Assembly (NCBI GenBank): GCA_003332265.1
Contig: QPGA01000007.1
Coordinates: 37,640 to 101,639, forward strand
Length of the DNA: 64,000 bases
Direction: 5' to 3'
Origin: Candidatus Accumulibacter meliphilus
Lineage (GTDB): Bacteria; Pseudomonadota; Gammaproteobacteria; Burkholderiales; Rhodocyclaceae
The notes under the pieces are model-generated. The model was not told the origin of the DNA and made no database searches. It worked only from the letters and a program-made list of their open reading frames with translations. The translations under genes and the position numbers were made by a program. Of the stretch, positions 1 to 64,000 are shown one piece after another (within the stretch, counting starts at the first letter, position 1; every line of letters begins with the position of its first letter).

Positions 1-140
1 AAGTTCCCGGTTTCCGGGCGCAGCGTGCCGTAGTCCAGCAGTTCGCTTAGGCCGGGAGGGGCAAACACCTCGAGCAGCTCGCGCACCAGATCGGCGTGCG
101 AGAACAGGTATTTGTAGCCCGCGTCGTGAAGGTGAACCAT
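1..140 (-). CDS. Rpn-family nuclease, N-terminal part only (gene runs off the left edge)
   Basis: The first 46 codons, starting MVHLHDAGYKYLFSHADLV, begin at the ATG complementary to 138-140 and read off the window edge without a stop. The Rpn (YhgA-like) family are PD-(D/E)XK-fold proteins that promote RecA-independent recombination; this is family knowledge, since the catalytic part lies outside the window. The DNA is about 96% identical (roughly six differences in 140) to the start of the second copy ending at 1532, but it lacks that copy's repeat insertion. It therefore acts as a natural empty site. The reading frame in the visible part is intact. Confidence 0.75.
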   Translation of the reverse strand, partial: MVHLHDAGYKYLFSHADLVRELLEVFAPPGLSELLDYGTLRPETGN

Positions 141-196
141 GGCGTCGATTGTAGCGCCTGAGCAAGGGCGAGCAAAGGGAAGGGACGAGAAGGGAT

Positions 197-422: not shown

Positions 423-1532
423 TCAGTTCTGTGTCGGGGTGAACACGGAGGCCATATCCGGCGCGGTAAGGGCTGCATCGAACCAGGCTTCGACCTGTGC
501 GAGGTCGGCCGCTGCTATTCGCTCGCCAATGGCCATCGGGATCGTGCCAAAGCGCTGGGAAAGAAGGCGTTGCAGAGCGCGAGCCTCGCCTTCGAGTTTG
601 CCAATCTGCAGGCCTTTTTGCTCGCCCAGTAGCATGCCTTCCGCTATCGCCTTGGCTTTCCATTGATCAATATTCGTTTCCAGCATTTCGGTTCCTTTCA
701 GCATGTCATCGAGTCCCGGCAGTGGCAGTCCGGGCATCTTGCGACTGAGACGGTACTGCATCCACTGCATTACCGCGCGATCTATCGTCTGCTTGAATGG
801 CGATTGGGCGACGGCCTGGCCAAGATAGCGGATTGCCCGTTTCGCATCTTCCGTGTCGTGAGTGTGCTCCATCCGGAATATCGCCGCCATTACTCGTTGC
901 AAGCCTTCGAGGTACTCTGCACTGAAGCGCCCCTCATCCAGCAACCAGAATTTCAGTTTTGGCTGAAATTCAGTCAGCACCGCCGGGTGCGGCTGGATCA
1001 GGTCGAAGATCTCGGGGCTGTGCTTCCAGCGCGCGTCGCCGTTGTAGATCACGATCGGCAGGACTGGCGGCAGGCCGTCTGCCGGATCGACGGTCTTGCT
1101 GCGCACCAGATGGTCGTAGAGCGCTGCGACGTACTGCATCATCCGCACCGGCATGCCCTTGTCAATCGAGGCCTGAAATTCGAGCAGCAGATAGAGGTAG
1201 ATGCGTTGGCCTTTTAGTTCGATCGACCAGACCACGTCGTCTTCGCGCTTTTTCATCGCCGGCGTGATGAAGCTGCCGGTTTCCGGACGCAGCGTGCCGT
1301 AGTCCAGCAGTTCGCTTACCGTGAAAGTCGCGTACGCGACTCACGAACCTCCCTTCTCCCCTTGCGGGAGAAGGGGCAGGGGAAGAGGGAAACGGTCATG
1401 ACTTTCATAATTTGGGGTGCCTCCACGTGTCATGACCGTTACGCCGGGAGGGGCAAACACCTCGAGCAGCTCGCGCACAAGGTCGGCGTGCGAGAACAGG
1501 TATTTGTAGCCCGCGTCGTGAAGGTGAACCAT
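423..1532 (-). pseudogene. Rpn-family recombination-promoting nuclease, split by a repeat
   Basis: The first 30 codons (1532 down to 1442) are separated from the rest (1318 down to 423) by a 123-bp repeat that brings a TGA into frame. Without the insert the protein reads through as PPGVSELLDYGTLRPETGS and then MKKREDDVVW, and would be about 330 aa. The C-terminal part shows the family's core (DDVVW, then YLLLEFQ, a PD-(D/E)XK-like D...E-x-Q arrangement). A 277-codon ORF from the internal ATG at 1256 stays open and keeps the putative nuclease core, so a shortened product is possible. The intact paralogue start at 1-140 confirms the original sequence. Confidence 0.75.
1319..1441 (-). mobile_element. 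123-bp palindromic element, copy R1 (inside Rpn gene)
   Basis: A complete copy lies between TTA (1316-1318) and TTA (1439-1441). Comparison with the uninterrupted paralogue at 1-140 shows that exactly 123 bp were added and that TTA is the duplicated target. It contains the three hairpins common to all copies: GGTCATGAC arms, CTTCTCCC/GGGAGAAG arms and AGTCGC/GCGACT arms. Its sense strand is the coding strand of the Rpn gene, but the phase of insertion puts a TGA in frame. Confidence 0.85.
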
Positions 1533-5001: not shown

Positions 5002-7332
5002 TCAGCGCTTCAGTCGGGCAAACGCACTGGCCATCGCGCCGCTTGCTTGGGGCTGGTTTTGCTGGCGTTGGCGGGCCTTGGCCGAGACTGGCGCCGGCGC
5101 CGCGGGTGAGCCTGTGCCCCCCTTCGCGGTGCTCGGCAGCTCATCGGCAAGGCGCATGCTGAGCGCGATGCGCTGGCGTGGCAGGTCGACCTCGAGCACC
5201 TTGACCTTGACCACGTCGCCGGCCTTGACGACGCTGCGCGGATCCTTGACGAACTGGTTGGCGATCGCCGAGATATGCACCAGGCCGTCCTGATGGACGC
5301 CGATGTCCACGAAAGCGCCGAAGTTGGCGACATTGGTGACCACGCCTTCGAGGATCATTCCCGGCTGCAGGTCCTTGACCGTCTCGACGCCTTCCCTGAA
5401 AGCCGCGGTCTTGAACTCCGGGCGCGGGTCGCGGCCGGGCTTTTCGAGTTCCTTGAGAATGTCGCGGACGGTCGGCAGGCCAAATTTGTCGTCGGTGTAT
5501 TTCTCCGGGATCAACGCCTTGAGCAGGCGGCTGTCGCCGATGCACTCACGGATTCCCTTCTTGATGTCGGCGAGCATGCGCTCGACGAGTGGGTAGGCTT
5601 CCGGGTGTACCGCCGAACTGTCGAGTGGGTTGTCGCTGTCGTTGATGCGCAGGAAGCCGGCGGCGAGCTCGAAAGTTTTCTCGCCGAGGCGCGGCACTTC
5701 TCTGAGCGCTTGCCGGTTAGCGAAAGCGCCGTGCCGGTCGCGGTGGGCAACGATGTTCGCGGCCAGGGTCGCGCTCAGTCCGGAGACGCGGGTCAGCAGC
5801 GGCACCGAGGCGGTGTTGACGTCCACGCCGACGGCGTTGACGCAGTCTTCGACGACGGCGTTGAGCGCCTTCGCCAGGCGGGTCTGACTGACGTCGTGCT
5901 GATACTGGCCGACGCCGATCGACTTGGGATCGATCTTGACCAGTTCGGCCAGCGGATCCTGCAGGCGACGGGCGATAGATACAGCGCCGCGCAGGCTGAC
6001 GTCGACGTCCGGGAACTCGCGCGAGGCGTATTCGGACGCCGAATAGACCGAGGCGCCGGCTTCGGAGACGACGATCTTGCGCAGGCGCAGCTCGGGATGG
6101 CGGCCGATCAGCTCGCCGGCCAGGCGGTCGGTTTCGCGCGATGCCGTGCCGTTGCCGATGCTGATCAGGTCGACCTGGTGTTTGCCGGCCAGCAAGGCCA
6201 GTTGGTGCAGCGCCCCGTCCCAGTCGCGGCGCGGTTCGTGCGGGTAGATGGTGGTCGTGTCGAGCAGCTTGCCGGTGGCGTCCACGACGGCCACCTTGAC
6301 GCCGGTGCGCAGGCCGGGATCGAGGCCCATGGTGGCGTGCTTGCCGGCTGGCGCAGCGAGCAGCAGGTCGTGCAGATTGGCGCCAAAAACGCGGATCGCT
6401 TCGGCTTCGGCGCGCTCGCGCAGGGCGTTCATCAGTTCCAGTTCGAGGTGCAGCGAAACCTTGATCCGCCAGGTCCAGCGCACGGTGTCGGCGAGCCACT
6501 TGTCGGCCGGGCGGCCACGGTCGACGATGGCGAAGCGTCCGGCGATGCGTGCTTCGCAAGGGTTGCTGCCGCTGGCCTGGTCCTGCTCTTCGCTGTCGAG
6601 GACCAGCGCCAGTTGCAGCATGCCCTCGTTGCGGCCGCGCAACAGCGCCAGCGCGCGGTGCGAGGGGATCGCCAGGATCGCTTCCGAGTAGGCGAAATAG
6701 TCGCGGAATTTGGCGGCCTCGTGCTCCTTGCCGGCGACCACGCTGGCGCGCAGCACCCCGTGCTCTTCAAGGTGATTGCGTAGATGGCCGAGTAGCGCGG
6801 CGTCTTCGGAGAAACGCTCCATGAGGATCTGGCGGGCGCCGTCGAGGACGCTCTTGACGTCGGCGAAGCCGGCTTCGGCGTTGAAGTAGCGCTCGGCTTC
6901 GCTTTCGGGGGACAGCATCGGGTCGGCAAACAAGGCGTCGGCGAGCGCTTCGAGGCCGGCTTCGCGGGCGATCTGCGCCTTGCTGCGCCGCTTCGGTTTG
7001 TAGGGTAGATAGAGGTCTTCGAGACGCTGCTTGGTTTCGGCAGTCTTGATTTCCGCGCTCAGCTCGGCAGTCAGTTTGCCCTGTTCCTCGATCGACGCGA
7101 GGACTGCGCTGCGGCGCTCTTCCAGCTCGCGCAAATAGATCAGGCGCTCGTCGAGCAGGCGCAACTGGATGTCGTCAAGACCCCCGGTCACTTCCTTGCG
7201 ATAGCGGGCGATGAAGGGCACCGTCGCGCCTTCGTCGAGCAGCGCGGCGGTGGCCTGGACCTGCTGTGGGCGGCAGCCGATTTCTTCGGCAATTTTTGCG
7301 GCAATACGTTGTTCGGTGGTTGTTGATGGCAT
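5002..7332 (-). CDS. tex: Tex family RNA-binding transcription accessory protein
   Basis: A 776-aa Tex protein. N-terminal helical region with [19 protein letters not shown], a YqgF/RNase H-like domain around [16 protein letters not shown], helix-hairpin-helix repeats ([18 protein letters not shown]), and a C-terminal S1 RNA-binding domain starting [19 protein letters not shown]. The length matches the family (about 770-780). Tex binds nucleic acid and influences transcription and stress survival; the mechanism is poorly defined. The start at 7332 ([17 protein letters not shown]) is the usual one; an upstream ATG at 7374 adds 14 non-conserved residues. It is divergent from fliW, with repeat R2 between them. 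Confidence 0.95.
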
Positions 7333-7372
7333 CGGTGATTTGTTGGCAGCGTGGCTGACGGAAAAGACGCGC

Positions 7373-7401
7373 ACTATGCAGAATCAAGCGTCAGAACTCA
7401 A
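7373..7401 (-). promoter_or_regulatory. Possible sigma70 promoter for tex
   Basis: On the minus strand TTGAGT (7396-7401) and CATAGT (7373-7378) are 17 bp apart, about 40 bp upstream of the tex start. Each box matches the consensus at four of six positions. No other hexamer pair in the 80-bp gap was better. Confidence 0.35.
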
Positions 7402-7413
7402 GGAGCGCGACGC

Positions 7414-7539
7414 TAACGGTCATGACAAACGAGACACCCCGGATCATGAAAGTCATGACCGTTCCCCCTCTTCCCCTGACCCTTCTCCCGCAAGGGGAGA
7501 AGGGAGCTTCGTGAGTCGCATACGCGACTTTCACATTAA
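7414..7539 (+). mobile_element. 123-bp palindromic element, copy R2 (between tex and fliW)
   Basis: Flanked by TAA at 7414-7416 and TAA at 7537-7539, with a period of exactly 123 bp. All three hairpins are present, with hairpin 3 as AGTCGC-ATAC-GCGACT. The frame that is coding in cheZ (NGHD...ESHDR...SPARGEG...VSRIRDFHI) is open through this copy. It lies 100 bp upstream of the fliW start and probably separates fliW from its original upstream region. Confidence 0.85.
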
Positions 7540-7639
7540 GGCGACTGCGGTGGGCGCTGATCGAATTGCCGCTGCCCGACGAATGGGGTTAAATGCTGGC
7601 TCTTGGCTGCTCGCCGCAGCGGCCGCCTTGGGGGACCTC

Positions 7640-8068
7640 ATGAAAATCGATCTCGAACGCTTCGGGCTGAAAGATGTGCCCGTCGACGCGGACACCGTGT
7701 TCACTTTTGCCGAGGGGCTGGCCGGTTTTCCCGACTGCCGACAGTTCAAGATTTTTCACGAAGAAGGCAAGGCGACGGTCTTCTGGCTGCAATCGCTCGA
7801 CGATGCTGACTTGAGCTTTCCGATCGTGCCACCGCAGAGCCTGGATCTTGAATACCAGATCGAGCTTTCGGACGCCGACTGCGCCTTGCTCGCTCTCGAA
7901 AGCGCCGACGATGCGAGCGTGGGGCTGATTGTTTACCGTAACGAGGCAGCAGGCGGGACGATCGCCGCCAACACGCGCTCGCCGATCATCCTCAACGCGA
8001 GCAATCGGCGCGGAATGCAGAAGGTTCTGCAGGACGTTCATCCGACGCTGCTCTACCGTGCACGCTGA
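7640..8068 (+). CDS. fliW: Flagellar assembly factor FliW
   Basis: 142 aa. In the FliW family the protein binds flagellin and the translational regulator CsrA, so that flagellin translation rises only when the filament can be built. The family hallmark FAEGLAGFPDCRQFKI is near residues 22-37, and the C-terminal part has the NTRSPIILNASNRRGMQKVL stretch typical of the fold. The start at 7640 follows GGGGGA; the frame is open further upstream to 7211, but that part runs through repeat R2 and is not family-like. The stop overlaps the next start (TGATG). No csrA is in the window. It lies 21 kb from flgB, outside the main flagellar run. Confidence 0.9.
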   Translation: MKIDLERFGLKDVPVDADTVFTFAEGLAGFPDCRQFKIFHEEGKATVFWLQSLDDADLSFPIVPPQSLDLEYQIELSDADCALLALESADDASVGLIVYRNEAAGGTIAANTRSPIILNASNRRGMQKVLQDVHPTLLYRAR

Positions 8069-8571
8069 TGGGCGGGAGTGCGGCGAGGGCCTGTGCCATG
8101 CCGGCGATCGCCAGGCTCGCTTGTGTACTGCTCGTCTCGGCAGCCTTGTTGCTTTCTGCGTCCTCTGTCGAGGCAGCGGCGGACACTGCGCCGGCTGGCA
8201 AGGTCAAGCGCAGCGAGGGTAGCGTGACGGTCGATCACGCCGGGCAGACGCAGCCGCTGTCGGTCGGTAGCCCGCTCTTCGTCGGCGATCGTATTCGCAC
8301 CGGAAGCGATGGTTCGGTCGGTGTGACCTTGTCCGACGATACCCTGCTCACGGCGGGACCCAACAGCACGCTGCTGATCAACGAGTTCCAGTTCAATACC
8401 ACCACTGAGGAGGGCAGTCTGTTGGCGACCCTGGTCAAGGGGACGCTGAGCGTGGTCACCGGCCTGATTGCCAAACAGGCGCCGGAGAACGTGCGCTTCA
8501 AGACGCCGAACGTGGTGCTCGGGGTCAGGGGCACGGAGTTTATCGTCGAAACGCGTGGAGAAGGCCAATGA
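8068..8571 (+). CDS. Secreted FecR-domain protein
   Basis: 167 aa with a signal peptide (LACVLLVSAALLLSASSVEA) followed by one FecR-type beta domain. Supporting segments are GSVTVDHAGQTQPLSVGSPLFVGDRIRTG and VRFKTPNVVLGVRGTEFIVET, the 'GVRGTEF' motif being characteristic. It is not a sigma regulator of the FecIR type, as there is no anti-sigma N-terminus and no sigma gene nearby. Such single-domain periplasmic proteins often sit beside OmpA-like lipoproteins and CHASE2 cyclases, as here. The ATG at 8068 overlaps the fliW stop; an ATG at 8098 sits closer to the signal peptide and may be the real start. Substrate or partner unknown. Confidence 0.8.
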   Translation: MGGSAARACAMPAIARLACVLLVSAALLLSASSVEAAADTAPAGKVKRSEGSVTVDHAGQTQPLSVGSPLFVGDRIRTGSDGSVGVTLSDDTLLTAGPNSTLLINEFQFNTTTEEGSLLATLVKGTLSVVTGLIAKQAPENVRFKTPNVVLGVRGTEFIVETRGEGQ

Positions 8572-9161
8572 GCAAAGCGTGCTGTCTGTGCGCGCTGCTC
8601 TGCTCGCTGAGCCTTGCCGCGTGTGCGCCATTCTCGGATCGCGTCGTCTTGTTGCCCGGACCCGACGGGCGTACCGGCGCGGTGCTGGTCAGTGCCGACG
8701 GCGAACAAAAAGTCCTCAGCGAGCCCTATGCCGATGTTCAGGTTGCTGACGGCAAGGTCGTCCTGCTGAAGACCAGCCCGGGGATGGTTCGCGATGACTA
8801 CGGTGCGCTGCTCGCCATGCAGCCTGCCCGGCCACGCTTGTTCGTCGTCCATTTCGACGCCGGGACGAGCGTGCTGACGCCGGCGTCGCGAACCCTGCTG
8901 GCGAGCATGCGCGCGGAGCTGGCGACCCTGCCCGCGGGCGAGGCCGTGGTCATCGGGCACACCGATAGGGTCGGTGCGCTCGAGGCCAACGACCGGCTGT
9001 CCTTGCAACGCGCGACGTTGGTGCGCGACATGCTGCTCAGCGCCGGCATCGCGCCGGAGGCGATTGCGGTAGTTGGGCGCGGCGAGCGTGCGCCGGTGGT
9101 AATGACCGCCGACGAGGTCGCTGAAGCACGCAACCGGCGCGTTGAAATCAAGCTTCGCTAA
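8568..9161 (+). CDS. OmpA-family outer-membrane lipoprotein
   Basis: 197 aa with a lipoprotein signal (lipobox LAAC, Cys at residue 19). A short variable region is followed by a C-terminal OmpA-like peptidoglycan-binding domain (FVVHFDAGTSVLTPASR, then GHTDRVGALEANDRLS, then ARNRRVEIKLR). It is expected to anchor the outer membrane to the cell wall. The start overlaps the FecR-domain gene by 4 bp (ATGA), so translation is probably coupled. Its TAA stop (9159-9161) is the left target duplication of repeat R3. The next gene is a CHASE2 cyclase, suggesting an envelope-sensing module. Confidence 0.88.
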   Translation: MSKACCLCALLCSLSLAACAPFSDRVVLLPGPDGRTGAVLVSADGEQKVLSEPYADVQVADGKVVLLKTSPGMVRDDYGALLAMQPARPRLFVVHFDAGTSVLTPASRTLLASMRAELATLPAGEAVVIGHTDRVGALEANDRLSLQRATLVRDMLLSAGIAPEAIAVVGRGERAPVVMTADEVAEARNRRVEIKLR

Positions 9162-9371
9162 GGCCCATGACTTTCATGACCTGTCGAGATACCCCTGATG
9201 ATGAAAGCCATGACCGTCTACCTCTTCACTTGCAGTGCGCATTCCGGCTGGCACGTCGGAATCGTTCGACGGGCAGGGGACATGCTCACTGCATTCCCCG
9301 TCGCACCCCGGCCCTTCTCCCGCAGGGGGAGAAGGGCGGTTCGTGAGTCGCGGACGCGACTTTCAGAGTAA
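9159..9371 (+). mobile_element. Palindromic element, rearranged copy R3
   Basis: TAA at 9159-9161 (stop codon of the lipoprotein gene) and TAA at 9369-9371 bound a copy with a period of 210 bp, 87 more than the usual 123. The extra sequence is mostly a stretch of about 77 bp between hairpins 1 and 2 (about 9230-9305), plus a small duplication near the left end. Hairpins 2 (CTTCTCCC/GGGAGAAG) and 3 (GTCGC/GCGAC) are intact. The right end overlaps the probable start of the cyclase gene. Confidence 0.75.
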
Positions 9372-14333: not shown

Positions 14334-15275
14334 ATGATGGATTTGGCAGAACGAAAAGACCTGCTCGAGGGCATGGATGCGCGCACGAGCCTGGCCGGTT
14401 CCAACAAGATGGAGATTCTCCTGTTCTCCCTGGGAACGCGCGAGACTTTCGGGATCAACGTCTTCAAAGTGCGCGAAGTCGGGCGAACGCCGCACATTAC
14501 CAGGACCCCGAACATGCCACGCGGCGTCGAAGGCCTGATTTCCCTGCGCGGCAACGTGATTCCGGTGTTGTCTCTGATTTCCTTTCTCGAACACAAGGAG
14601 CAACCGCGGGAGCACGGCAAGACGATGATGGTCGCCGAGTATTCGAAGCGCACCCTGGGCTTCCTGGTGCACGACGTCGATCGCATCATCCGCGTCGACT
14701 GGGAAAGAGTGAAGGCGCCAGAAAGCGTCCTGTCGAGCAACCAGGGCCTGATCACGGCGATCACCGAACTCGATGATGGCAAGTTGGTGTCGATTCTCGA
14801 CGTCGAGCAGATCCTGGCCAATGCCTTTGGCGAGGCGCTGATCGTCGATATCCAGCGCGCCAACGTTGCCGACGATGTGGGGATGTTCTTCGCCGACGAT
14901 TCGATCGTCGCCCGGCGCAAGATCGTCGAGGTGCTCGACAGACTGGGCGTGAAACACAAACATGCCACCAACGGGGCCGAAGCATGGAGTCGCTTGCAGG
15001 CCATCGCTGCGCACGCCAGCCAGAGCGGGACCAGCGTGCGCGACGAAATACGCCTGATCCTGGTCGATGCCGAAATGCCGGAAATGGACGGTTATGTCCT
15101 CACCAAGAACATCAAGGGTGATGCACGTTTTGCAGGTATCCCGGTGGTGATGCACTCGTCGCTGTCGTCCGAGGCCAATCATGCGATGGGCAAGGCGGTG
15201 GGCGTCGACGCCTACGTTGCCAAGTTCGATGCGGAGGTGCTTGCCGACACCTTGCGCCCCTTGCTCGAACGTTAA
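14334..15275 (+). CDS. cheV: Chemotaxis coupling protein CheV (copy 2)
   Basis: 313 aa with the same CheW plus receiver layout as the preceding gene and clear similarity along the whole length (SNKMEILLFSLGTRETFGIN versus TNKLEILLFSLGTDARTGRQ), so this is a tandem duplication. Receiver residues: FFADDSIVARRKI, VDAEMPEMDGY, MHSSLSSEA and VAKFDAE. The copies differ mostly in the CheW surface, so they may prefer different receptors. No cheW gene is present nearby, so these two may carry the coupling role of this cluster. SD CAGGAG; ATG at 14334, with an ATG immediately after. The TAA stop lies at the left end of repeat R4. Confidence 0.93.
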   Translation: MMDLAERKDLLEGMDARTSLAGSNKMEILLFSLGTRETFGINVFKVREVGRTPHITRTPNMPRGVEGLISLRGNVIPVLSLISFLEHKEQPREHGKTMMVAEYSKRTLGFLVHDVDRIIRVDWERVKAPESVLSSNQGLITAITELDDGKLVSILDVEQILANAFGEALIVDIQRANVADDVGMFFADDSIVARRKIVEVLDRLGVKHKHATNGAEAWSRLQAIAAHASQSGTSVRDEIRLILVDAEMPEMDGYVLTKNIKGDARFAGIPVVMHSSLSSEANHAMGKAVGVDAYVAKFDAEVLADTLRPLLER

Positions 15276-15396
15276 TCTGGAAGTCGCGCAAGCGGCTCGC
15301 GAATCGCCTTTCTCCCCGCGCGGGAGAAAGGCCGGGAAAGAGGGAAACGGTCATGACTTTCATGATCTGCGGCGCCTCGACATGTCATGACCGTTG
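15272..15396 (-). mobile_element. Palindromic element, copy R4 (between cheV and cheY)
   Basis: The inverted orientation runs from TTAA at 15272-15275, which includes the cheV stop codon, to TTGA at 15394-15397, with a period of 122 bp. Hairpin 2 here has CCTTTCTCCC and GGGAGAAAGG arms, against CCCTTCTCCC and GGGAGAAGGG in most copies: both sides of one base pair changed together. The right target copy has a substitution (TTG for TTA). Confidence 0.8.
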
Positions 15397-15820: not shown

Positions 15821-16834
15821 ATGAGCGACTTCGATCGCGCGGGTGATTCGACCGAACTCGAAGCCCTGTTTGACAGCGTTGCTGCAGCCGTCACCTCGAC
15901 CGGCACCGCCGCGGGGCCGGCGGCAACAGGCAAACCGTCGCTCCTGCAGCAATTGCGCGAAGTCGAAGCCAAGGAAGCCGAGGAAGCCGAGGAAGCCGAT
16001 AGCGACGACTTGCAGGCCTTGTTCGAAGCCGTGCTTGCCGCGCAAGCGCCGGCCGTTGCGACCGCGGCTAACGGTCATGACAATCGAGACACCACAGATC
16101 ATGAAAGTCATGACCGTCTCCCCCTCTTTCCCGACCCTTCTCCCGCGACGGGAGAAGGGAGGTTTGTGAGTCGCTTGCGGGACTTTCACATTAAGGAGAG
16201 CGGCGAAGGTGGCGAACAGGAAAGTGGCAACGAGAAAGTGTTTCGACGGGTGGGTCAAATGGCCCGGCAGTTGCACGACACACTCGGCGAACTCGGCTAT
16301 CACGAGCTTCTCGGCACGGCCGCTGCCGCCATCCCCGATACCCGGGACCGCCTCAACTACGTCGCCAGCTTGACGGAGAAAGCCGCCTGCCGCGTTTTGA
16401 ACGCCACCGACATCGCCAATCCGCTGCAGGACCAGCTCGAAGCAAGTTCCGCAGCCCTGGCCGCGAAATGGGATGCGTTGTATGCCAACCAGATGGGGGT
16501 CGAAGAGTTCAAGAAACTGGCCGACGACACGCGTGCCTTCCTGAAGCAGGGTTTGCCGCAGCACACGGACGCGACCAAGGCACAACTGCTCGAAATCATG
16601 ATGGCCCAGGATTTTCAGGACCTGACCGGGCAGGTGATCAAGAAGACCATCGCCGTGGCGCAGGAACTGGAGGCGCAACTGATGGGCGTGCTGATCGAAA
16701 CCATGCCTGGGGAGCGGCGCACCGAATCGGTGATGAGTCTGCTCAACGGGCCGGTGATCAACGCCGAAGGGCGCAGTGACGTCGTCGCCACGCAGCAGCA
16801 GGTCGACGATCTGCTCGGCAGCCTGGGCTTCTAG
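15821..16834 (+). CDS. cheZ: CheY-P phosphatase CheZ carrying an in-frame repeat insertion
   Basis: 337 aa, versus about 210 in enterobacteria. The phosphatase signature AQDFQDLTGQVIKKT is intact (the catalytic Gln and Asp are both present), and the C-terminal CheY-binding tail QQQVDDLLGSLGF is nearly identical to the E. coli one. The N-terminal 80 residues are Ala/Glu-rich and variable (KEAEEAEEAD comes from a 9-bp repeat). Residues about 84-124 are translated from repeat element R5, which adds exactly 41 codons without a stop. Removing it restores ...TAAKESGEGG. The insert sits ahead of the conserved helical core, in what is probably a flexible region, so activity is likely kept. Confidence 0.93.
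   Translation: MSDFDRAGDSTELEALFDSVAAAVTSTGTAAGPAATGKPSLLQQLREVEAKEAEEAEEADSDDLQALFEAVLAAQAPAVATAANGHDNRDTTDHESHDRLPLFPDPSPATGEGRFVSRLRDFHIKESGEGGEQESGNEKVFRRVGQMARQLHDTLGELGYHELLGTAAAAIPDTRDRLNYVASLTEKAACRVLNATDIANPLQDQLEASSAALAAKWDALYANQMGVEEFKKLADDTRAFLKQGLPQHTDATKAQLLEIMMAQDFQDLTGQVIKKTIAVAQELEAQLMGVLIETMPGERRTESVMSLLNGPVINAEGRSDVVATQQQVDDLLGSLGF
16069..16194 (+). mobile_element. 123-bp palindromic element, copy R5 (in frame inside cheZ)
   Basis: Flanked by TAA at 16069-16071 and TAA at 16192-16194, with a period of 123 bp (41 codons). Translated in the cheZ frame it gives NGHDNRDTTDHESHDR, then SPATGEGRFVSRLRDFHI, with no stop. The TAA repeats are split between codons (gcT AAc / atT AAg), so neither is a stop. 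All three hairpins are recognisable; hairpin 3 has one mismatch (GCGGGACT). Confidence 0.9.
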
Positions 16835-25963: not shown

Positions 25964-26833
25964 GTGGCACGTCGAAAACGCGCCGAGGAAGGGCACGAAA
26001 ACCACGAGCGTTGGCTGGTTTCGTACGCGGATTTCATTACCCTGCTGTTCGCTTTCTTTGTTGTGATGTACGCCCTTTCCTCCGTCAATGAAGGCAAGTA
26101 CCGAATTCTGAGCGATTCGATGGCCAGCGCTTTTCGCAATGTACCGGCCAACAGCGCTGGCCAGCTGGCGCTGATCGTGCCGACACCGGCGTCCGTGGCG
26201 AAGCCCAGTCTGGCCAGCAAGGCGCAGGAGGCCGTCAAACAGAAACAGCGCGAGAGTATGCGCAGCATTGCCAAGGACATTCTTGAGGTGATGGCGCCCC
26301 TGGTCGCGCAGGGGAAGGTGCGGGTCCTTGAAACCAGTCGCGGGGTGACCATAGAAATCAACGACAGCATCCTGTTCTCGCCAGGGCAGGCCTTGATTCA
26401 ACCGCCACTGGCACGCGCCATGGAGGCGGTGGCCGAGGTGCTGGTGGGGACCGATTTCCCGATTACCATCGAGGGACACACCGACGATGTGCCGATCAGC
26501 AATACACAGTTCCCGTCCAACTGGGAGCTGTCGGCGGTGCGTGCTACGACCGTTCTGCGCCTCTTCGCGGCAGCCGGCATCGCCGCGCCGCGGCTGACCG
26601 CGATCGGCTATGCCGATACGCGCCCGGTCGAGCCGAATGCACTGGCGGACGGGCGGGCGCGCAATCGTCGGGTCTCGATTCTGATCGACTCGGCGATCCC
26701 GGAAAAAGGCACCGAAGTCGATCTGCAGGGGCAGGGCGAGAGCGCCGCGGTGGCCGCCGATCCGGCGCCAGCGGAACCACCACTGCCACCGGCACCACCG
26801 GCAAGTACAGCAGCTCCGCTGCCAGCACGTTAA
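25964..26833 (+). CDS. motD: Flagellar motor stator protein MotD (MotB family)
   Basis: 289 aa from a GTG at 25964, 3 bp after motC. A single N-terminal membrane segment contains the proton-path Asp (WLVSYADFITLLFAFFVVMYALS). The C-terminal OmpA-like domain binds peptidoglycan (TIEGHTDDVPI, then SNWELSAVRA). A Pro/Ala-rich tail of about 30 residues ends the protein. The stop TAA (26831-26833) overlaps the left end of repeat R6. Before the insertion the gene would have ended at a TAG at the same place. Confidence 0.92.
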   Translation: MARRKRAEEGHENHERWLVSYADFITLLFAFFVVMYALSSVNEGKYRILSDSMASAFRNVPANSAGQLALIVPTPASVAKPSLASKAQEAVKQKQRESMRSIAKDILEVMAPLVAQGKVRVLETSRGVTIEINDSILFSPGQALIQPPLARAMEAVAEVLVGTDFPITIEGHTDDVPISNTQFPSNWELSAVRATTVLRLFAAAGIAAPRLTAIGYADTRPVEPNALADGRARNRRVSILIDSAIPEKGTEVDLQGQGESAAVAADPAPAEPPLPPAPPASTAAPLPAR

Positions 26834-26957
26834 TGTGAAAGTCGCGCAAGCGACTCACGAAACTCCCTTCTCCCCTTGCGGGAGAAGGGTCAGGGGAAGA
26901 GGGGAAACGGTCATGACTTTCATGACTTGGGGGTGTCTCCACGCCTCATGACCGTTA
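26830..26957 (-). mobile_element. Palindromic element, copy R6 (between convergent motD and flgN)
   Basis: TTA at 26830-26832 and TTA at 26955-26957 bound a copy with a period of 125 bp in inverted orientation. The left TTAA contains the motD stop (TAA) and the right TTA is the flgN stop read on the minus strand. Both neighbouring genes thus end inside the target duplication. All three hairpins are present. Confidence 0.85.
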
Positions 26958-33186: not shown

Positions 33187-33888
33187 ATGATGAGTACTGG
33201 CCGGGTGAAGGTGAACAAGACAGCGCTGTTGCTGCTTCCCGTGGCCCTGCTGATGGCCGCGTGCACCACTGTGCCGCCGACCAATATCCACCAGCCGATG
33301 ACCGCGCGCCCGCAGTATCGAAGCGATGCCCTGGCGGCCAATCTGGCAGCTACCGGCAGCATTTATCAGGCGGGGGCCTCGAGAACCCTGTTCGAAGATC
33401 GCCGTGCGCGTTATGTCGGCGACACGATCACGGTGACCATCAGCGAGAACAACAACGCGGCGACCAAATCGAACACCAACGTCAGCAAGACCGGCAGCAT
33501 CAGCGCCACCGCCGGGCCGTTCGCGGGTTCGCCGGCCAACTGGTTCCGGCCCGGGGAGCTGAACGCCAGCAGCAGCAATGTCGCCGCCGGCAAAGGCGAT
33601 TCGGCGGCCAACAACGTGTTCACCGGGACCATTACGGTGACCGTCATCGAGGTCCTGCCGAACGGCAATCTGCTGGTTTCCGGCGAGAAGCAGGTGGCCA
33701 TTGGTCAGGGGCAGGAATACATCCGGCTTTCGGGAATCGTCAATCCGTATTTCGTCAACGCCGCCAATACCATCCCCTCGTCACAGATTGCCGATGCACG
33801 CATCGAATACAAGGAGAGCGGGGCGATCAGCGAAGCGCAGGTGATGGGCTGGCTGGCACGATTCTTCCTTACCGTCCTGCCATTCTAA
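33187..33888 (+). CDS. flgH: Flagellar L-ring lipoprotein FlgH
   Basis: 233 aa with a lipoprotein signal (KTALLLLPVALLMAAC, lipidated Cys near residue 26). The L-ring domain shows DTITVTISENNNAATKSNT and NLLVSGEKQVAIGQGQEYIRLSGIVNP. Forms the outer-membrane bushing of the rod. Its TAA stop (33886-33888) is also the left target repeat of element R7. Before the insertion the stop and the SD of flgI shared one TAAGGAG. Confidence 0.96.
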   Translation: MMSTGRVKVNKTALLLLPVALLMAACTTVPPTNIHQPMTARPQYRSDALAANLAATGSIYQAGASRTLFEDRRARYVGDTITVTISENNNAATKSNTNVSKTGSISATAGPFAGSPANWFRPGELNASSSNVAAGKGDSAANNVFTGTITVTVIEVLPNGNLLVSGEKQVAIGQGQEYIRLSGIVNPYFVNAANTIPSSQIADARIEYKESGAISEAQVMGWLARFFLTVLPF

Positions 33889-34011
33889 GGGTCATGACAT
33901 GTCGAGATTTCCGAGATCATGAAAGTCCTGACCGTCCCCCCTCTTCCCCGACCCTTCTCCCACGAGGGGCGACGGGAGGTTCGTGAGTCGCGTACGCGAC
34001 TTCCACAGTAA
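33886..34011 (+). mobile_element. 123-bp palindromic element, copy R7 (between flgH and flgI)
   Basis: TAA at 33886-33888 (flgH stop) and TAA at 34009-34011, with a period of 123 bp. The right TAA continues into GGAG, the SD of flgI. This copy is slightly decayed: hairpin 1 has CTGAC in one arm and hairpin 2 has GGGGCGACGGG. Hairpin 3 (AGTCGC-GTAC-GCGACT) is perfect. Confidence 0.85.
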
Positions 34012-36285: not shown

Positions 36286-38334
36286 ATGGGCTCAGGAATC
36301 ATCAATACCGCAGTGACCGGTCTGCACGTCGCTCAGTATGGGCTGCTGACCACCGAACACAATATTGCCAACGTCAACACCCCGGGCTTCTCACGCCAGC
36401 GGAGCATCCAGGCGAGCAATGCCGGCTTGCTGACCGGCGCTGGCTTTGTTGGCCAGGGTGCGCACGTGGCCACGGTCGAGCGCATGTACAGCCGTTTTCT
36501 GACCGAGCAGGTGGATCGTTCGCAGAGCAGCGCCAGTGAACTGGAGACCTACTACGCACAAATCAGCCGGATCGATGATTTGCTCGCCGACCCGGGCACC
36601 GGGCTGTCGCCAGCGCTGCAGGCCTTCTTCGCCAGCGTTCAGGACCTTGCCGCCAATCCTTCGCGGTTGGAGAACCGCCAGGCGATGGTCTCGACGGCGC
36701 AGTCACTGAGCGCCCGCTATCAGTCCTTGAGCGATCAACTGGCCGAGATGTACGATGGCATCAACAGTGGAATCACGGCTGCCGTCGCCAGCGTCAATTC
36801 CTACGGCGAACAGATCGCCTCGCTGAACGGTCGCATTGCGGTTGCCGAAGCTTCGACCGGCCAACCGCCGAACGACCTGCTCGATACGCGCGACCAGATG
36901 GTGCTCGAACTGAACCAACTGATCCGTACCCGCACGACGACCAATACCGATGGCAGCTACAACGTCTTCGTCGGCAGCGGCCAGCAACTGGTTGTCGGCT
37001 CACAGCTGGTCGGCATGGCGACCATGGCGTCGAGCGCCGATTCCTCCCGCCTGGTCGTCGGTTTGCGAACCACGGCCGGGGTCCAGGAGATGCCGGAGTC
37101 CTTGATCAGCGGTGGCAGTTTGAGCGGCTTGCTGGCTTTCCGCAGCGAGTCCCTGGATAGGGCGAGCAACGAACTGGGCAGCAACGCGGCTTCGCTGGCC
37201 TTGACCTTCAATGCGCAACACGCGCTCGGTCAGGATTTCTTCGGTCAGTCGCAGCTCGCCTCGTCGTCATCGTCGACCAGCTTTACGCCGCAGTTCTTTT
37301 CGGTTTCTCCGCCAGTGGTGATCGGCAACACCCGGAATCCGCCGGGTAGCCCCCTGGTCAGCGCTGCTTTCGTCAGCCCGCAGCCGTTCAATGGCAATTT
37401 CTACGCCGATCTGGGCAACAGTGATTACCGACTCAATGCCGACGGCGCTGGCCTCACCCTGACCCGCCTGACGGACAACAAGCAATGGACGGGGGCCGAC
37501 CTGGCGGCGGTGAACGCACAGCTGAGCAGTGATCCGCAGGGTTTTGAGCTGGCTTCACCGGTCGCCCTGGTGGCGGGTTCCAGCTATCTGATTCAGCCGA
37601 CGCGGGGAGCGGCGCGCGGCATCGTGGTGAATCCTGCGCTGATCGCCGACTCGCGTCTGGTCGCCGCGGCCGGACCGCTGCGGGCCGCCGTCGGCACGGC
37701 CAATACCGGTTCGGCCACCATTTCATCGGGCCAGGCCGGACCCGGCTATGCGGACGCCGTGGCCGGATTGCCGATCAGTCTGGAATACAACGCTGGCGAA
37801 CTGCGCAACTTCCCGGTCGGTGCGCGGGTGTCGATCGATGGTGCAGCGCCGGTGAACATCACCGCCAGCGACCAGGGCATTGCCTACAGCAGCGGCGCAA
37901 CGGTCACCCTGGTGGGCTCGGCCAGCGTCAGTCCGCCCACCGGCTTCAGCTTTGTGATGACCGGTTTGCCCAATAATGGCGACCGCTTCACGGTCGAGAT
38001 CAACAGCGGGGCCACGGCCGACGGGCGCAACGCGCTGACCCTTGCGCAGCTGCAAACGCAGCACACGATGTCCGGGCAGACGGCTTCCTATCAGGACGCT
38101 TATGCGCGCCTGGTGAGCGAAACCGGCAACAAGACACGCCAGTTGCAGGTCAGCTCCGAAGCGCAACAGAACTTGTTGGCGCAGGCACAAGCGAGTCGCG
38201 ACTCGCTGTCGGCGGTCAATCTGGACGAGGAAGCGGCGAACCTCATTCGCTATCAGCAGGCCTACCAGGCGTCGGCGAAGGCATTTCAGATTGGCGCCTC
38301 CCTGTTCGACACGATTCTCGAACTGGCGGCTTAA
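36286..38334 (+). CDS. flgK: Flagellar hook-filament junction protein FlgK (HAP1)
   Basis: 682 aa, somewhat longer than the enterobacterial form (547). N-terminal axial motif GLHVAQYGLLTTEHNIANVNTPGFSRQ. C-terminal signature SAVNLDEEAANLIRYQQAYQASAKAFQIGASLFDTILEL. The middle is a variable surface domain that accounts for the extra length. Sits between hook and filament with FlgL and is escorted by FlgN. Strong SD (CAGGAG). Its TAA stop is the left end of repeat R8. Confidence 0.96.
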   Translation: MGSGIINTAVTGLHVAQYGLLTTEHNIANVNTPGFSRQRSIQASNAGLLTGAGFVGQGAHVATVERMYSRFLTEQVDRSQSSASELETYYAQISRIDDLLADPGTGLSPALQAFFASVQDLAANPSRLENRQAMVSTAQSLSARYQSLSDQLAEMYDGINSGITAAVASVNSYGEQIASLNGRIAVAEASTGQPPNDLLDTRDQMVLELNQLIRTRTTTNTDGSYNVFVGSGQQLVVGSQLVGMATMASSADSSRLVVGLRTTAGVQEMPESLISGGSLSGLLAFRSESLDRASNELGSNAASLALTFNAQHALGQDFFGQSQLASSSSSTSFTPQFFSVSPPVVIGNTRNPPGSPLVSAAFVSPQPFNGNFYADLGNSDYRLNADGAGLTLTRLTDNKQWTGADLAAVNAQLSSDPQGFELASPVALVAGSSYLIQPTRGAARGIVVNPALIADSRLVAAAGPLRAAVGTANTGSATISSGQAGPGYADAVAGLPISLEYNAGELRNFPVGARVSIDGAAPVNITASDQGIAYSSGATVTLVGSASVSPPTGFSFVMTGLPNNGDRFTVEINSGATADGRNALTLAQLQTQHTMSGQTASYQDAYARLVSETGNKTRQLQVSSEAQQNLLAQAQASRDSLSAVNLDEEAANLIRYQQAYQASAKAFQIGASLFDTILELAA

Positions 38335-38456
38335 TGTGAAAGTCGCGCAAGCGACTCACAAACCTCCCTTCTCCCCTCGCGGGAGAAGGGTCGGGGAAGA
38401 GGGGGAAACGGTCATGACTTTCATGATCTGGGGTGTTTCGATTGTCATGACCGTTA
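38331..38456 (-). mobile_element. 123-bp palindromic element, copy R8 (between flgK and flgL)
   Basis: TTA at 38331-38333 and TTA at 38454-38456, with a period of 123 bp, inverted relative to the flg genes. The left TTAA holds the flgK stop codon and the right TTAA leads into GGAG, the flgL SD. Hairpins 2 and 3 are perfect. On the minus strand the cheZ-type frame (NGHDNRNTPDHESHDR...SPARGEG...) is open across the whole copy. Confidence 0.88.
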
Positions 38457-53025: not shown

Positions 53026-53151
53026 TAACGGTCATGACATGTCGAGATAGCCCGAATCATGCAAGTCATGACCGTTTCCCTCTTCCCCAGACCCTTCTCC
53101 CGCGAGGGGAGAAGGGCGCTTCGTGAGTCGCTTGCGCAACTTTCACATTAA
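53026..53151 (+). mobile_element. 123-bp palindromic element, copy R9 (first of a tandem pair)
   Basis: TAA at 53026-53028 to TAA at 53149-53151, with a period of 123 bp. It is nearly identical to R10 next to it (five or so differences). The TAA in the middle is shared by both copies. Confidence 0.88.
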
Positions 53152-53274
53152 CGGTCATGACATGTCGAGATACCCCGAATCATGAAAGTCATGACCGTTT
53201 CCCTCTTCCCCAGACCCTTCTCCCGCGAGGGGAGAAGGGCGCTTCGTGAGTCGCTTGCGCGACTTTCACATTAA
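53149..53274 (+). mobile_element. 123-bp palindromic element, copy R10 (second of a tandem pair)
   Basis: TAA at 53149-53151 to TAA at 53272-53274, with a period of 123 bp. Closest to the consensus: all three hairpins are perfect, with 11-bp arms (ACGGTCATGAC) in hairpin 1 and 10-bp arms (CCCTTCTCCC) in hairpin 2. Its right TTAA is also the beginning of the sigma28 -35 box TAAAGTTT of the next gene. Confidence 0.88.
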
Positions 53275-63579: not shown

Positions 63580-64000
63580 GGGTGACTCCTTGGGTGGAAG
63601 AGCGGTTCACTCGGCGGGCCAGTGCTTGTGAGCAGCTTTGTTGAACGCTGCGCCAGCAGCGGCGGGAAGGGATGCGGACCGGTCACGGTGCGAGAGGCCG
63701 CCAGGACGGGTCGTGCGGCCATGATAACGACTTGCTGAAGCCGAGCGCAAGGCCGCTGCCGGGGCAAGTACTTTTTCGGCTGCGCTTAAATCCCACTTAA
63801 CGGTCATTGCAGTTGCGGCCGCCCCGGATCATGAAAGAAAATTCGAGTTGGGAAGCGATGGGTAGAGGTCGCGCAAAGCTTTGGCGGCTCGACCCCGAAC
63901 TTTAACGTGACCCGCTGAACCGACTCGTACCCCGGATTGCTGCCATCGAGCGCACACATTAAAAGGGCCGTTGGCGACCTGTCGCCTTCAGGCAACTTCG
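63580..64000. other. Right-end intergenic sequence
   Basis: 421 bp upstream of sodC to the window edge. It contains a truncated repeat (63798-63838). A 63-codon minus-strand frame (63804-63995) passes through the repeat and has no SD or recognisable similarity, so it is not called a gene. No tRNA, terminator or clear promoter was seen. Confidence 0.4.
63798..63838 (+). mobile_element. Truncated palindromic element, copy R11
   Basis: TTAACGGTCATTGCAG followed by CCCCGGATCATGAAAG matches only the left third of the element. Hairpin 1 is cut before its second arm, and hairpins 2 and 3 are absent. It shows that partial copies persist. Confidence 0.65.

What the first reader, a model, noticed from the sequence alone, without database searches (positions are those of the whole stretch)
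53026..53274. A dispersed 123-bp three-hairpin element: ten near-complete copies and one fragment in 64 kb
Copies at 1319-1441, 7414-7539, 9159-9371, 15272-15396, 16069-16194, 26830-26957, 33886-34011, 38331-38456, 53026-53151, 53149-53274 and a fragment at 63798. Seven have a period of exactly 123 bp from one target TAA/TTA to the next; the others are 122, 125 and 210. Each has three consecutive hairpins: ACGGTCATGAC/GTCATGACCGT arms; CCCTTCTCCC/GGGAGAAGGG arms; AGTCGC/GCGACT arms. The ends are not inverted repeats of each other apart from the TTAA, so it is not a usual terminal-inverted-repeat MITE. It carries no transposase, and no transposase gene is in the window. The length of 41 codons and protein insertion recall the Rickettsia palindromic elements, but the sequence differs.
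Basis: partly seen in the sequence, partly recalled or inferred. Interest (0 to 1): 0.9.

Follow-up and report, generated by a model that had tools for sequence, protein, structure and literature searches.

The report
Hitchhiker DNA of bridge-RNA transposons
A wastewater bacterium carries hundreds of copies of a tiny gene-less DNA element whose two ends are those of a larger jumping gene that uses an RNA guide to choose where it lands, so the small one probably hitchhikes on the large one's machinery.

Summary
The repeat is real: ten full copies in the window, about 250 projected for the genome, and model hits in 22 of 28 genomes of the genus, Candidatus Accumulibacter. It is mobile: one empty site lies in duplicated DNA of the window itself, five more in a close relative. 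The 'fragment' at 63798 is not a fragment. It is the left end of a ~1.55-kb IS110-family element whose recombinase gene starts just past the window. The terminal boxes of the IS (TAACGGTCAT / CTTTCACATTAA) are those of the repeat, and the left-end likeness runs ~35 bases further (0 of 2000 shuffles, 5 of 5 elements). Upstream of the recombinase lies a guide-RNA region whose donor guide covaries with the right end (11 of 12 lineages) and whose target guide covaries with insertion sites. The repeat is best read as a non-autonomous IS110 derivative moved in trans by a bridge-RNA recombinase; that last step is inferred. Against a simple story: in one relative 17 of 17 sampled repeats do not match the resident IS, and right-end likeness beyond 12 bases is weak. 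Hairpins with compensatory changes over three genera are not explained by the donor role. I found no natural IS110 hitchhiker in the papers searched.

The parts
1316..1441 (-). 123-bp element; right end of the CACGG type; duplicated DNA with an empty TTA lies at 47-49
7414..7539 (+). 123-bp element, upstream of the FliW domain of ORF 7211-8068
9159..9371 (+). long form (~210 bp, ~85 bp extra in the middle) at the stop codon of an OmpA-like gene
15272..15396 (-). 122-bp copy at the stop codon of a gene with CheW and receiver domains
16069..16194 (+). 123-bp element in frame within the cheZ reading frame (41 extra codons before the CheZ domain)
26830..26957 (-). 125-bp copy at the stop codon of a motB-like gene
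33886..34011 (+). 123-bp element at the stop codon of flgH; site empty in G001
38331..38456 (-). 123-bp element at the stop codon of flgK; site empty in G001
53026..53151 (+). first copy of a tandem pair
53149..53274 (+). second copy, sharing one TAA; the pair is absent in G001
63798..64000 (+). left end of an IS110-family element: terminal TAACGGTCAT box and most of the guide-RNA region; runs out of the window
63896..63904 (+). proposed left target guide, ending in the TA core (length taken from IS621)
63953..63961 (+). proposed left donor guide (CACACATTA), like the right ends of the IS and of the 123-bp element

Best explanation
The 123-bp element is a non-autonomous miniature of an IS110-family insertion sequence. 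It keeps the left end (about 45 bp), the right end (12 bp strictly, about 35 bp loosely) and filler hairpins, but no recombinase and none of the guide region. Proposed mechanism: when its right and left ends are joined (in a circle or a tandem dimer) they form the junction CTTTCACAT-TA-ACGGTCAT, the donor sequence of the resident IS110. The donor loop of that IS's bridge RNA pairs with it, the target loop pairs with a YTAA site, and the DEDD recombinase exchanges strands at the TA core. TA then flanks both sides and looks like a TAA duplication. Shown: the repeats, their presence/absence at the same site, the shared ends, the guide covariation in the IS. Inferred: that the IS moves the repeat, circles, and copy gain.
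For: Shared ends at the exact insertion boundaries, fixed independently by the six of nine G011 IS copies that show both ends, with different flanks. Left-end likeness inside the terminal box: 0 of 2000 shuffles in 5 of 5 IS. Guide covariation in the IS: dinucleotide before the core equal in donor guide and right end in 11 of 12 lineages, five types AT, GG, GC, GT, AC (4 of 100,000 shuffles); target guide versus target 1.98 of 3 matches against 1.26 (2 of 20,000). Target base -1: T in 4 of 4 own IS copies whose guide has T (3 of the 4 beside a 123-bp copy, so not independent); C in 23 of 23 others, whose guide has C. The 123-bp element uses the same kind of site: 39 solo copies, base -1 C 26, T 11, G 1, A 1. 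T is commoner in the genome with the T-guide IS: 11 of 39 against 1 of 30 in G010+G011, p 0.009; dropping further flanks that look like another copy, 10 of 37 against 1 of 29, p 0.017; dropping none, 11 of 39 against 2 of 31, p 0.029. Young copies with unequal flanks (L016 GAA/TAA, L007 TAA/TAG) fit a 2-bp core better than a copied target. Empty sites: window 47-49, and G001 for 9159, 15272, 33886, 38331, 53026, read by eye. Right ends of the 123-bp element in the own genome: CACAT in 68 of 85, as in the own IS. Plausibility: IS621 integrates a 22-bp donor with recombinase and bridge RNA in trans (PMC11208160, passages).
Against: No movement was observed. Own-genome IS copies contain runs of N, so an intact recombinase there is not shown. 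In G011 the IS ends in CACGG but 0 of 17 sampled 123-bp copies do (11 CACAT, 5 CACAG, 1 CAAAT; picked by similarity to a CACAT query). In G061 the one IS found ends CACGT while 6 of its 8 repeats end CACGC, and G094 has 89 model hits but no IS match at 1e-60. Right-end likeness beyond the last 12 bases: 37 (G001), 112 (G011), 428 (G023), 430 (G024) and 298 (G010) of 2000 shuffles. The guide region of G001 folds no better than its shuffles (z -0.25). G032 breaks the donor-guide match; in G023a the guide's core reads GA. Hairpin covariation is not required by a double-stranded donor.
Confidence: 0.8

Rival explanations
1. The IS110 element only uses the repeat as a landing site, as IS1111 does in the Coxiella QMITE2 repeat; the repeat itself was spread by something else.
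For: 3 of 5 own IS copies sit at the TTAA end of a 123-bp copy; of 11 complete copies in relatives one (L117) abuts a 123-bp left end and one more (L127) may. Coxiella precedent: PMC5896051, passages.
Against: The other 9 of 11 complete copies lie at plain CTAA sites, yet have the same ends; likeness extends ~35 bases into the left end; G232 and G176 have IS of this type but no model hit.
Confidence: 0.1
2. A miniature moved by an unknown DDE transposase with a 3-bp TAA target duplication.
For: 29 of 39 solo copies have TAA on both sides.
Against: No terminal inverted repeats; unequal flanks in young copies; a partner with the same ends already found in IS110.
Confidence: 0.05
3. A single-strand (Y1, REP or IS200/IS605 type) element, using the hairpins near both ends.
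For: Hairpins near both ends with compensatory changes; 4 Y1 matches in the genome.
Against: No element copy in the four Y1 loci (three lie at contig ends); the ends match IS110 instead.
Confidence: 0.04

Closest known systems
IS110 family (IS621, ISEc21) with bridge RNA / seekRNA
   Same: The partner has DEDD and Transposase_20 domains, an upstream non-coding region with donor and target guides, no inverted repeats, and a 2-bp core at both junctions.
   Different: The 123-bp element has no recombinase and no guide region. The core is TA; the target is short and loose (YTAA).
Mini-IS and 22-bp donors built in the laboratory (PMC11208160, PMC11187229, passages)
   Same: Cargo with IS ends moved by recombinase and guide RNA in trans.
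   Different: Those are engineered; this is natural and present in hundreds of copies.
MITEs (e.g. MITEPye1 with IS1182, SMN1 and SM3A of Sulfolobus; passages in PMC11578231, PMC3718332)
   Same: Short, gene-less, multi-copy, ends shared with an autonomous partner.
   Different: No terminal inverted repeats, probably no true target duplication, partner of the IS110 family.
Coxiella QMITE2 and IS1111 (PMC5896051, passages)
   Same: A small repeat and an IS1111/IS110-type element found together.
   Different: There the repeat is described as a target of the IS, not as its derivative.

Membership tests
Non-autonomous IS110-family derivative | Left and right ends shared with an IS110 element at its insertion boundaries | tested here: met
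   (right end beyond 12 bases weak)
Non-autonomous IS110-family derivative | Donor junction matches the donor guide of a resident IS | tested here: inconclusive
   met in G000 (68 of 85 CACAT); not met in G011 (0 of 17) nor G061
Non-autonomous IS110-family derivative | Mobilised in trans by the IS recombinase and RNA | not testable with these tools
   needs an experiment
IS110 family (the partner) | DEDD_Tnp_IS110 and Transposase_20 domains | tested here: met
   G011 copy, PF01548 5.9e-26 and PF02371 1.1e-21
IS110 family (the partner) | Non-coding region with guides covarying with donor and target | tested here: met
   a right target guide was not identified
IS110 family (the partner) | Circular intermediate with a junction promoter | not tested
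   -
Classical MITE | Terminal inverted repeats | tested here: not met
REP/REPIN with RAYT | Y1 transposase gene flanked by the repeat | tested here: not met
   (4 loci, three of them cut by contig ends)
Any Rfam family | Gathering-score match | tested here: not met
   0 matches in the window

The most novel reading that the evidence does not exclude
A natural parasite of a bridge-RNA recombinase that also makes its own RNA: the inner arm of its left hairpin is an exact reverse complement of its right-donor half (AACGGTCATGAC / GTCATGACCGTT), the relation of a right donor guide to its donor, and the two covary over three genera. The transcript could act as a partial guide or as a decoy for the recombinase, not only as cargo.
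Probability: 0.12. Interest if true: 0.88.

Novelty: new variant of a known kind. Interest (0 to 1): 0.74.

Why it matters
Bridge-RNA recombinases are being developed as genome-editing tools, but the small donors that I saw described for them (passages) are man-made. A natural element in hundreds of copies would show which end sequences suffice in a cell, how donor specificity separates resident elements, and how natural target guides have been re-aimed (own IS: T instead of C). It also explains a main repeat of Ca. Accumulibacter, known (recalled) as the phosphate-removing bacterium of wastewater plants, including an in-frame insertion in cheZ.

Tried and rejected
Rfam: no match in the window. 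Y1 transposases: four loci, no copy of the element. ORF 423-1256 with a Transposase_31 (YhgA-like) match lies next to the 1316 copy; that family is recalled as a nuclease rather than a transposase with ends, and I did not test it as a mobiliser. The G001 hit L043 is a decayed long form; the G008 hit L044 looks like chance. Stop codons: five of the ten window copies lie at a stop codon (ORFs 8568-9161, 14334-15275, 25964-26833, 33187-33888, 36286-38334), but over 76 full copies 24 do, against 106 of 441 background YTAA sites, p 0.20, so site choice needs no other cause than YTAA. A target duplication as the sole explanation: unequal flanks in young copies. Literature: (IS110 or IS1111 with bridge RNA, seekRNA, MITE, miniature, non-autonomous or nonautonomous; Accumulibacter with MITE, IS110 or repeat words) gave no IS110 miniature; I opened passages of nine papers and saw the rest as listings; of 2,081 papers only 15 were listed. 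The library is open-licence PMC only; ISfinder was not searched.

Full report
What is there. The ten copies are real. From TAA to TAA seven have a period of 123 bp, the others 122, 125 and about 210. A 400-kb sample of another contig of the genome holds 21 full and 6 partial copies, which projects to about 247 full copies in 4.70 Mb. Among 76 full copies with readable flanks (a set that includes loci picked by similarity), 37 touch another copy on at least one side by a strict flank motif and 39 do not ('solo'; at least two of these, L106 and L010, still look like neighbours of a copy); 49 of the 76 are 123 bp long.

Who has it. The model hits 22 of 28 genomes of the genus, own included, at E 1e-6. 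With DNA alone, 11 of 13 same-genus genomes (own included; the G008 hit looks like chance) and 0 of 8 others had a match. Of ten genomes outside the genus six had some match: G094 (same family) 89, G061 (another family) 8; the other four had one or two at 3e-4 to 7e-3, not inspected. I read all 8 of G061 and 12 of 89 of G094: they have the same plan.

It moves. Window bases 1-154 and 1300-1546 hold duplicated DNA; one side has an empty TTA (47-49), the other the 1316 element. G001, the closest in protein identity of the relatives compared and with one decayed hit, lacks the element at 9159, 15272, 33886, 38331 and 53026; at 1316, 7414, 16069 and 26830 the flanks are too diverged for a clean reading. 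In 400 kb of stretches taken around orthologous genes of seven relatives the model found 0 copies.

The partner. The 'fragment' at 63798 occurs four times identical and once at 94% in the genome. L097 and L099 show the start of an IS110-type gene behind it; L099 and the window copy (L102) show the C-terminal part and the right end; between them are runs of N. A search of 28 genus genomes with the visible C-terminus hit 13. Twelve of the 28 loci gave a left and a right end at 1.3-1.7 kb; one (L130) paired with neighbouring 123-bp left ends and was dropped, leaving 11: G001, G010, G011 (6), G023, G024 (2), each 1,547-1,568 bp. The own copies did not pass that distance filter, their N runs being of uncertain length. 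G011 has a 406-aa open recombinase with both Pfam domains; the G001 copy is frameshifted.

The same ends. IS: TAACGGTCAT ... CTTTCACATTAA; 123-bp element: the same. Inside the left box the likeness is beyond all 2000 shuffles in all five IS tested. Inside the right box it is good only for G001 (37 of 2000) and marginal for G011 (112).

The guide. In the non-coding region before the recombinase a CAC-NN-TAA motif (AATAC-TAA in G176) repeats the right end: AT, GG, GC, GT, AC in different lineages, 11 of 12 equal. Related lineages were shuffled as if independent; counted by clade it is six of six, with G032, of the AT clade, as the miss. Upstream, a motif ending in TA resembles the target left of the core; L129 matches it over GATGCC, G176 over TTC in 4 of 4 copies. 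G032 (different core), L132 and L144 (no left end) were left out of the target count. The donor loop is closed by a 6-bp helix, 4 pairs of which show compensatory changes; overall stability is not above shuffles. This is the published arrangement of IS110 bridge RNAs (PMC11208160, passages; PMC11187229, passages), found here by comparison. I did not identify a right target guide, and the right donor guide only tentatively.

Sites of the 123-bp element. Solo copies: base -1 C 26, T 11, G 1, A 1; left TAA 31 of 39, right TAA 35 of 39. The left third A and the right T are 39 of 39, as expected if they belong to the element and TA is the core. The own IS guide has T at -1, and own 123-bp copies have T more often than those of G010 and G011 (p 0.009 to 0.029 by what is dropped).

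What does not fit. In G011 and G061 resident IS and repeats have different right ends. Either the repeats were spread by an earlier IS of another donor type, now lost there, or the donor guide is not the whole story. The three hairpins are kept by compensatory changes over 31 copies from three genera of two families (69 cells with both sides changed, 0 of 500 shuffles; the number of further pair types, 22, is not above shuffles, 497 of 500; the middle helix of G061 is poorly aligned). A double-stranded donor does not need this, so the hairpins probably do something more, such as ending transcripts, folding as single strand, or acting as an RNA.

Genes. The window is largely a flagellar and chemotaxis region (cheZ, flgK, flgH, motB, flhA, fliP, fliW, chemoreceptors). 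Copy 16069 adds 41 codons to cheZ in frame.

Noticed in passing
window 1-154 and 1300-1546: Duplicated DNA, one side with and one without the 123-bp element: an empty site inside the window.
   Followed up: yes
window 423-1256: Reading frame with a Transposase_31 (YhgA-like) match at 1.4e-19, 60 bp from the 1316 copy and between the two duplicated stretches.
   Followed up: no
window 9159-9371; L077, L080, L043: A long form (~210 bp) with a further ~85-bp middle piece; four copies in the 464 kb searched, and the form of the single decayed hit in G001.
   Followed up: partly
L096 1501-1534: A solitary 34-bp left end of the IS110 element, followed by unrelated sequence, before what looks by eye like a chemoreceptor gene.
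   Followed up: no
L115: In G030 an IS110 right end of the CACGG type abuts the target-guide motif of another copy, as if one IS had landed in the guide region of another.
   Followed up: no
L031, L033, L034: Y1 transposase matches at or near three contig ends, perhaps another multi-copy element.
   Followed up: no
window 16069-16194: In-frame copy upstream of the CheZ domain, open through all 41 codons.
   Followed up: partly
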